From the NCBI GenBank assembly GCA_900323505.1, contig OOIN01000006.1, forward strand, positions 434,001 to 498,000: DNA of 64,000 bases, given 5' to 3'. Of the stretch, positions 40,764 through 41,542 are shown one piece after another. Under the pieces are notes generated by a model. It worked only from the letters and a program-made list of their open reading frames with translations, made no database searches and was not told the DNA's origin. Position numbers and translations under genes: made by a program. This DNA comes from Ustilago trichophora (taxonomy: Eukaryota > Basidiomycota > Ustilaginomycetes > Ustilaginales > Ustilaginaceae). How positions within the stretch are numbered: position 1 is the stretch's first letter; each line of letters starts with the position of its first letter.

Positions 40764-41542
40764 ATGAGCCGAATCAAGCAGACAAGCCGTAAAAGTACGG
40801 GCGGTAAGGCTCCTCGAAAAGCGTTGGCCACCAAGCGGGCCCGCTTGAGTCAAGAGACAGCGGAGGCAGGGCATTCGACTGCCGTTGCAAACACGCAACC
40901 CACCCTGCCTTTCGAAGAATCACAAACTGGCTCTCCTCAGGACAAATCCATCGACCGCAGTCAGGAAGCGAGCTCGTCGGAATCTACAAGAGTCCATGTA
41001 GGTCTAAGCAACAAACTGCTGGCGCCATCTCCCTAGGGTGTTAATGTTCTGACTTGTTGCCTTCGCACACGAGATTCCAACAGCAACAATCACAGCAACA
41101 AAAAATCGATGAATGGTCAAAGGAAGAAATGGTGAGATCGATGCGCCTCCATGCGGATGTGAATGGTCACATGAAAGCGGCCCATTCTGATTTACGGTCT
41201 GGTTTGGTTGCGACGGTGTGACAGAGACTCTTGCTCGACACTCATCTCGAGGTGGCTCAGGAAAGCATTTACGCATTTCGTGGAGCGCCACTTCTGCGCG
41301 TTCGCGGCACCAGTAGGTGAGCGAGTTTCTCATCTTCCACAGAATTTCTCATCTTCCACAGAATTTCTCATCTTCCACATAGCTCAACTATCGTGAGACG
41401 CTGACCGCTTATTCTCTTTGCTCCCGGCTTCGTCAACCCCAGCATCCTAAGAAAGCTCCAAGAGCTACACGATCAAGCAGTCGAAGCTCTCGAAAAGCAG
41501 GATTTTGAGGCCAAGGCGGATCCCGAGGTCGATACGAAGTAA
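40764..41542 (+). CDS. Histone H3 tail-mimic protein without a histone fold (four exons)
   Basis: Exons: 40764-40997, 41084-41131, 41225-41316, 41443-41542; introns 86, 93 and 126 bases, GT-AG, phases 0, 0, 2; 157 residues. After the initiator Met, residues match the H3 N-terminus at 22 of the first 28 positions ([18 protein letters not shown], then [10 protein letters not shown]). Lysines equivalent to K4, K9, K14, K18 and K23 and Ser10 are kept. T3 is Ile and K27 is Leu. After this the sequence is unlike H3: a Ser/Thr/Glu-rich linker, then charged probable helices KIDEWSKEEMRLLLDTHLEV and SILRKLQELHDQAVEALEKQ. No H3 histone fold is recognisable. The tail starting exactly at the Met, as in H3, decides the start codon. 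Possible roles are a decoy or scaffold for H3-tail writers and readers. The tail match is directly visible; exons 2-4 are a consistent but unproven model. Confidence 0.7.
41326..41382 (+). repeat. Three 19-base tandem repeats inside intron 3 of the H3 tail-mimic gene
   Basis: Units at 41326-41344, 41345-41363 and 41364-41382 read TTTCTCATCTTCCACAGAA, the third ending CATAG. Each of the first two contains a CACAG that looks like a splice acceptor. The acceptor used in the model is the later CCCCAG at 41442, downstream of a GCTGACC branch-like sequence. Confidence 0.85.

What the first reader, a model, noticed from the sequence alone, without database searches (positions are those of the whole stretch)
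40764..41542. Protein that copies the histone H3 tail but lacks the histone fold
The first 28 residues after Met match H3 at 22 positions and begin exactly at the N-terminus, so a read-out as a free H3-like tail is possible. K4, K9, S10, K14, K18 and K23 equivalents are kept, while T3 and K27 are lost, so some H3 modifiers could act on it and others (Haspin-type, K27-type) should not. The remaining ~125 residues look like a linker plus charged helices, spliced from three more exons, with no H3 core. Full-length tail mimicry of this extent is far longer than the four- to six-residue mimics known in proteins such as G9a. It could be a soluble decoy, a dimerising scaffold for chromatin readers, or an H3-derived chimeric gene. 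The coding of the tail and the absence of the fold are seen; the role is inference.
Basis: partly seen in the sequence, partly recalled or inferred. Interest (0 to 1): 0.88.

Follow-up and report, generated by a model that had tools for sequence, protein, structure and literature searches.

The report
Histone H3 tail without a histone
Three smut fungi carry a small protein that begins with a copy of the histone H3 tail but has no histone body, and the tail has stayed nearly unchanged while much of the protein drifted, which suggests that the cell uses it as a stand-in for the real histone tail.

Summary
The window is taken to be Ustilago trichophora (contig C6 of a 38.8 Mb assembly). A four-exon gene at 40764-41542 encodes 157 residues; 22 of the first 28 after Met match the fungus's own H3, and no histone fold follows. 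The deposited protein UTRI_10131 probably has the wrong start and skips exon 2. Relatives of the same layout exist in Pseudozyma hubeiensis (147 aa, named 'histone H3') and Sporisorium reilianum (206 aa); both start at the tail. In all three, R2, K4, R8-K18 and L20 are identical, the linker is unalignable, and an unassigned ~60-residue helical domain is kept. The tail's synonymous codons are no more like H3's than chance (10 of 22 identical, 9.0 expected), yet its residues are kept (0 of 20,000 neutral simulations). So this is most likely a long-selected H3-tail mimic, not a relic. The other subgenome (C7) lacks the whole gene. The genome keeps an H3K9-type methyltransferase, HP1, RdRPs and an SRA protein. 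I think K9-K18 enzymes or readers bind or modify the tail (a decoy or adaptor, like PAF15 or EZHIP); the partner is inferred, not shown.

The parts
40764..40997 (+). exon 1: start codon, H3-like tail, most of the linker (78 codons)
   Evidence: both relatives also start at this Met
40767..40826 (+). H3-tail-like residues 1-20 ([20 protein letters not shown]), 16 of 20 identical to own H3
40788..40820 (+). invariant core R8-K18 ([11 protein letters not shown]), 11 of 11 identical in U. trichophora, P. hubeiensis, S. reilianum and own H3
40998..41083 (+). intron 1 (GTAGGT..CAACAG)
41084..41131 (+). exon 2 (QQSQQQKIDEWSKEEM), start of the conserved C-terminal domain; left out of the deposited model UTRI_10131
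41132..41224 (+). intron 2 (GTGAGA..TGACAG)
41225..41316 (+). exon 3, middle of the conserved domain (..LLL...F...LRVRGTS)
41317..41442 (+). intron 3 (GTGAGC..CCCCAG); by eye it holds about three copies of a 19-base repeat
41443..41542 (+). exon 4, end of the conserved domain (ILRKLQELHDQAVEALE) and stop
40429..41609 (.). 1,181-base stretch absent from the matching place on the other subgenome (between C7:1064887 and C7:1064889); holds the whole gene and no coding part of the two neighbours
40315..40512 (+). first exon of the deposited model UTRI_10131 (extent read by eye from P0001); most likely not coding (C6/C7 differences 7, 8, 8 by codon position over the 35 codons compared)
42018..44744 (+). 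flank: NOP9 gene (PUF_NOP9, E 4.4e-105)
37476..39548 (+). flank: PGAP2IP/Cwh43-like gene (main open frame)

Best explanation
A free-standing H3-tail mimic. The 5' part of an H3 gene was joined, before the smut genera here split, to sequence encoding a linker and a small helical domain. After Met removal (inferred) the protein presents S/A1-R2-x-K4...R8-K9-S10-T11-G12-G13-K14-A15-P16-R17-K18 at its N-terminus on a probably disordered tether. Selection has held the R8-K18 core, which covers the sites of K9 and K14/K18 writers and readers, while the tether drifted. Most likely mechanism: the C-terminal domain places the protein in a complex or on chromatin, and an H3-tail enzyme or reader (first candidates: the genome's own Pre-SET/SET methyltransferase, HP1, or a Gcn5-type K14 acetyltransferase, the last not searched for here) binds or modifies the tail as it would H3, so that the protein recruits it or keeps it off nucleosomes. 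Shown: tail, absence of the fold, conservation of tail and domain, presence of K9-type machinery in the genome. Inferred: expression, the partner, recruiting versus competing.
For: 22 of 28 residues match H3. Synonymous codons at chance level: 10 of 22 same-residue codons identical, 9.0 expected from the codon use of two neighbouring genes, yet 22 of 28 residues kept where neutral simulation gives 11-12 on average and never 22 in 20,000 runs at each of four ts/tv settings. Three species: R8-K18 11 of 11 identical in every pair; linkers poorly alignable (36, 110 and 335 of 500 shuffles reach the observed score); domain 26, 26 and 40 of 56 identical. Shared Q5N in P0002 and P0007, and H3 similarity at residues 21-30 in U. 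trichophora (6 of 10) and P. hubeiensis (4 of 10; S. reilianum 0 of 10), argue for one H3-derived ancestor. No Pfam family reaches its cut-off. Genome holds Pre-SET at two places (one read: Pre-SET+SET), chromo-shadow at two (one read: chromo+chromo-shadow), RdRP at six and SRA at two.
Against: No transcript or protein evidence. Only three named species, from annotated proteins alone; of the 120 rows listed (561 matched) none with a shown name is U. maydis or U. hordei, although U. hordei is reported to keep heterochromatin genes that U. maydis lacks (PMC7763443, passages), so a link to heterochromatin is not established. One subgenome of this fungus lacks the gene, so it is dispensable at least there. 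The simulation assumes descent from today's C27 H3 gene; part of the synonymous change may date from a time when the copy was still a full H3, or lie on the H3 side. PxVxL and PIP motifs that would name a partner were found in 0 of 3 proteins. The fold of the C-terminal domain is unknown.
Confidence: 0.6

Rival explanations
1. The tail serves mainly as a nuclear import signal. H3(1-28) is an import signal for Kap123, which grips K14 and K23.
For: H3 tail is a known import signal, K14 and K23 in two pockets (PMC5677370, passages); K14 is invariant here.
Against: Counted without gaps, position 23 is R in P. hubeiensis and F in S. reilianum. Uncharged S10, T11, G12, G13, A15, P16 are invariant, more than an import signal should need (inference).
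Confidence: 0.14
2. A DNA-binding regulator with a SANT/Myb-like domain whose basic tail only adds loose DNA affinity.
For: The domain starts with WS.EE..LL as SANT/Myb repeats do (hmmsearch 4.8-7.2 bits, hhalign probability 30 over 12 columns, against 9 Myb repeats of this genome).
Against: No Pfam SANT/Myb match at E<=10; only helix 1 aligns; the domain is acidic (pI 5.0). Exact tail conservation is not needed for loose DNA binding.
Confidence: 0.1
3. An effector that leaves the fungus and mimics H3 in plant nuclei.
For: The organism is a grass smut, and pathogen histone mimics that act on host chromatin are known (recalled).
Against: The first 25 residues are hydrophilic in 3 of 3 proteins (mean hydropathy -1.20 to -1.31), so no signal peptide by eye; a tail at the very N-terminus leaves no room for one. 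No signal-peptide program was run.
Confidence: 0.05
4. A decaying chimeric fragment of an H3 gene, or a wrong gene model.
For: Deposited model differs; the gene is missing from the other subgenome.
Against: Tail kept against synonymous change at chance level; intact collinear relatives in two other genera.
Confidence: 0.04
5. An exon of an ordinary H3 or CENP-A gene.
For: The tail itself.
Against: Own H3 genes (C10, C11, C21, C27) lie elsewhere, tail and fold together. The H3-like genes on C26 and C29, taken here as CENP-A (70% to H3 over the matched part), also lie elsewhere; the open frame upstream of them reads MASRGRPSL, not H3-like, though that join is mine by eye. Relatives end without a fold.
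Confidence: 0.01

Closest known systems
PAF15 (PCLAF), the UHRF1 target in vertebrates
   Same: Non-histone with an H3-like free N-terminus read as H3 by a chromatin protein (UHRF1 PHD binds VRTK as it binds ARTK) and modified on tail lysines (PMC7060239, passages).
   Different: PAF15 is bound through its ARTK-like end and has spaced lysines; here R8-K18 is word-for-word H3. No PIP box by pattern, no PF15715 match. The 623-aa SRA frame read in this genome has no PHD or RING.
EZHIP (CATACOMB), K27M-like inhibitor of PRC2
   Same: H3-tail-like stretch in a non-histone that acts on a histone methyltransferase in place of H3 (PMC6513997, abstract).
   Different: EZHIP imitates the K27 region; here K27 is gone and K9, K14, K18 are intact.
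Short histone mimics: G9a itself, ATF7IP, DNA ligase 1 (seen in titles and abstracts), influenza NS1 (recalled)
   Same: Copy the K9 or a similar context so that K9 writers and readers act on them.
   Different: A few residues, mostly internal (recalled); here 16-18 of 20 residues at the free N-terminus, most likely derived from H3 itself.
Histone H3 and CENP-A
   Same: The tail.
   Different: No histone fold; an unassigned helical domain instead.

Membership tests
Histone H3 (PF00125) | histone fold | tested here: not met
   no PF00125 match at E<=10 for P0001, P0002, P0007 and the model
Histone H3 (PF00125) | H3 N-terminal tail | tested here: met
   E 3.2e-11 over residues 1-37 of H3 with the three-species profile
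CENP-A | histone fold of the centromeric H3 type | tested here: not met
   no PF00125 match; the genome's CENP-A-like genes lie on C26 and C29
PAF15/PCLAF | H3-like free N-terminus | tested here: met
   freedom of the N-terminus is inferred from the start codon
PAF15/PCLAF | PF15715 profile | tested here: not met
   not among matches at E<=10
PAF15/PCLAF | PIP box | tested here: not met
   pattern found in 0 of 3 proteins
SANT/Myb | three-helix fold with helix-1 WS.EE..LL and helix-3 signature | tested here: inconclusive
   helix-1 signature only; AF2 of P0002 gives helices 86-102, 104-107, 118-145 at mean pLDDT about 70-80
Histone-tail mimic (functional class) | bound or modified by an H3-tail enzyme or reader | not testable with these tools
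   needs peptide binding or mass spectrometry

The most novel reading that the evidence does not exclude
A smut-fungal family of free H3 tails on a tether: proteins born from an H3 gene that lost the histone body and kept the tail to control H3K9/K14 writers or readers off the nucleosome, so that heterochromatin or acetylation dose is set by a non-histone 'tail buffer' gained and lost between genomes.
Probability: 0.4. Interest if true: 0.88.

Novelty: new variant of a known kind. Interest (0 to 1): 0.74.

Why it matters
Histone mimics known so far are mostly short motifs (recalled). A word-for-word stretch of H3 tail kept by selection without its nucleosome, in three genera, would separate what the tail is selected for as a peptide (R2, K4, R8-K18) from what it needs on chromatin (beyond residue 20), and gives a testable natural competitor for H3-tail enzymes. 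It also shows that such a gene can be missing from one of two co-resident genomes.

Tried and rejected
Rejected: ordinary H3 or CENP-A exon (own genes found elsewhere). Rejected: the deposited start and first exon of UTRI_10131 (C6/C7 differences 7, 8, 8 by codon position over 35 codons, against 5, 0, 15 over 110 codons of NOP9; both relatives start at the tail). Rejected: recent H3 copy (synonymous sites at chance level).

Searches (6 of 6 listed; 0; 1 of 1; 0; 15 of 38; 12 of 25; 1 of 1) looked for fungal or long H3-tail mimics; no listed title or abstract start is about this gene family. That is a limited search of open papers.

Considered and left open: co-loss with heterochromatin in U. 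maydis. No named row is U. maydis among the 120 listed of 561, but none is U. hordei either, so there is no correlation to report.

Of the 120 listed rows I read 23 sequences (P0001; 12; 11, of which P0078 was a repeat). Apart from P0001, P0002, P0007, P0060, P0072, P0113 and P0115 (H3 start run into a glycine-rich protein) they look like whole H3s, H3 fragments, intron read-through or mis-started H3. The other 97 rows I saw only in the table.

For one search, 9 Myb repeats were used of 26 matched places; 10 places were extracted and one near-copy (L043) dropped.

Full report
What it is. The window lies on contig C6 (434001-498000) of a 38.8 Mb, 45-contig assembly. The only database protein found by the single-sequence search is UTRI_10131 of Ustilago trichophora, on a contig of the same length as C6 (1,507,999 bases), so the organism is taken to be that smut. 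H3, CENP-A-like, Pre-SET, chromo-shadow, SRA and RdRP genes each turned up in pairs on different contigs, so the assembly looks like two subgenomes or nuclei.

The gene. Four exons, 40764-40997, 41084-41131, 41225-41316 and 41443-41542, all with GT-AG introns, give 157 residues. The deposited protein (240 aa) skips exon 2 and adds an exon from 40315. Part of that added stretch exists on both subgenomes; it differs at 7, 8 and 8 sites by codon position over 35 codons, while the first 110 codons of NOP9 next door differ at 5, 0 and 15. It does not behave as coding. Two relatives start at the tail Met, and exon 2 carries the first part of a domain that they keep.

The tail. Residues 1-28 after Met match the fungus's H3 at 22 of 28 positions; 58 of 87 bases (Met codon included) are the same as in the C27 H3 gene. 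Among the 22 shared residues, 10 codons are identical, where 9.0 are expected if codons were drawn independently from the use of two neighbouring genes (P of at least 10 is 0.39). S10 is coded AGT against TCT or TCC in the four H3 genes. So the synonymous sites keep no visible memory of H3. If the 29 base differences had fallen without selection, 11 to 12 of 28 residues would remain on average; 22 or more was seen in 0 of 20,000 simulations at each of four ts/tv ratios (maximum 19). The caveat is that part of the synonymous change may lie on the H3 side or predate loss of the fold.

The relatives. A profile search of 5.77 billion proteins (7,999 candidates scored, 561 at E<=10, 120 listed) put P0002 of Pseudozyma hubeiensis (147 aa, E 7e-18, named 'putative histone H3') second, after UTRI_10131 itself, and P0007 of Sporisorium reilianum (206 aa, E 1e-11) seventh; rows 3-6 between them are vertebrate predictions with several histone domains that match over the tail only (18% of the query). 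P0002 and P0007 are the only other listed rows that cover 90% or more of the query. A single-sequence search and a tail-only search had found only UTRI_10131. All three proteins have the same layout: H3 tail, low-complexity linker (61, 66 and 105 residues), 60-residue domain. Invariant in the tail: R2, K4, R8-K18, L20. R8-K18 is 11 of 11 in every pair and against own H3. Linkers score little better than shuffles (36, 110, 335 of 500 reach the score); domains share 26, 26 and 40 of 56 residues.

Weaker leads. Two 92-aa proteins of unnamed source, P0060 and P0072 (89% alike over 90 residues), begin [29 protein letters not shown] and go on into an acidic stretch; P0060 has 50% identity to UTRI_10131 over 60 residues. 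They may be first exons of such genes elsewhere, or of an H3 variant; they have R at 18, so K18 would not be invariant if they belong.

The C-terminal domain. DEWS.EE..LLL...........F...P.LRVRG..S...KL.E.H.Q...A.E. No Pfam family reaches its curated cut-off. AF2 on the alignment headed by P0002 gives helices 86-102, 104-107 and 118-145, mean pLDDT about 70-80 per ten residues there. Only the first helix resembles SANT/Myb repeats (hhalign probability 30, 12 columns).

Presence and absence. The matching place on C7 has the same flanks at 84-86% identity but lacks window 40429-41609, with one base between the two matches (the same limits in a second BLAST). The missing part starts 335 bases before the start codon and ends 67 bases after the stop. 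No second copy was found in the genome with the DNA or the deposited protein; the protein search found, on C7, only the upstream stretch. Since relatives exist in two other genera, loss on the C7 side is the simpler reading, but synteny in those species could not be checked.

What could read the tail. The genome has Pre-SET at two places (one read in full: Pre-SET plus SET), chromo-shadow at two (one read: chromo plus chromo-shadow), RdRP at six, and SRA at two (the 623-aa frame read has no PHD or RING). So K9 methylation and its reader should exist. The invariant core R8-K18 covers K9, K14 and K18 with their neighbours. In fission yeast H3K14ub stimulates the K9 methyltransferase Clr4, and a Clr4 assay uses the H3 1-20 peptide (PMC12418378, passages). 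Nothing here shows which protein, if any, binds.

Known parallels. PAF15 has an H3-like N-terminus that the UHRF1 PHD finger binds with Kd 2.2 uM against 1.5 uM for H3 (PMC7060239, passages). EZHIP inhibits PRC2 through a K27M-like stretch (PMC6513997, abstract). The protein here works, I think, like these, but it belongs to neither family: no PIP box by pattern, no PF15715 match, no K27.

Verdict. Observation confirmed. That this is a selected H3-tail mimic of H3 origin: about 0.85. That it acts through K9-K18 writers or readers as decoy or adaptor: about 0.6. Heterochromatin in particular: about 0.35.

Noticed in passing
whole assembly G000: Paired copies of the chromatin gene families looked for (84-86% DNA identity at this locus): the U. 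trichophora assembly looks like two subgenomes or a dikaryon of distant parents, about twice the 20.7 Mb given for strain NBRC 100157 (PMC8951962, passages).
   Followed up: partly
P0060, P0072 (proteins of unnamed source): Two 92-aa proteins with an H3-like N-terminus (R at 18) and an acidic linker, 89% alike, no histone fold in the part held.
   Followed up: partly
P0113 (protein of unnamed source, 333 aa): H3-tail copy ([28 protein letters not shown]) at the C-terminal end of an unrelated, unnamed protein fragment; no Pfam family over its cut-off.
   Followed up: no
window 41317-41442: By eye, about three copies of a 19-base repeat (agaatttctcatcttccac) inside intron 3.
   Followed up: no
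L055 691-2562 (C29): SRA-domain protein of 623 aa without PHD or RING in this frame, with a repeated motif (QREANIRANHELLSSLG-like, twice by eye) near its N-terminus; a second SRA place lies on C26.
   Followed up: no
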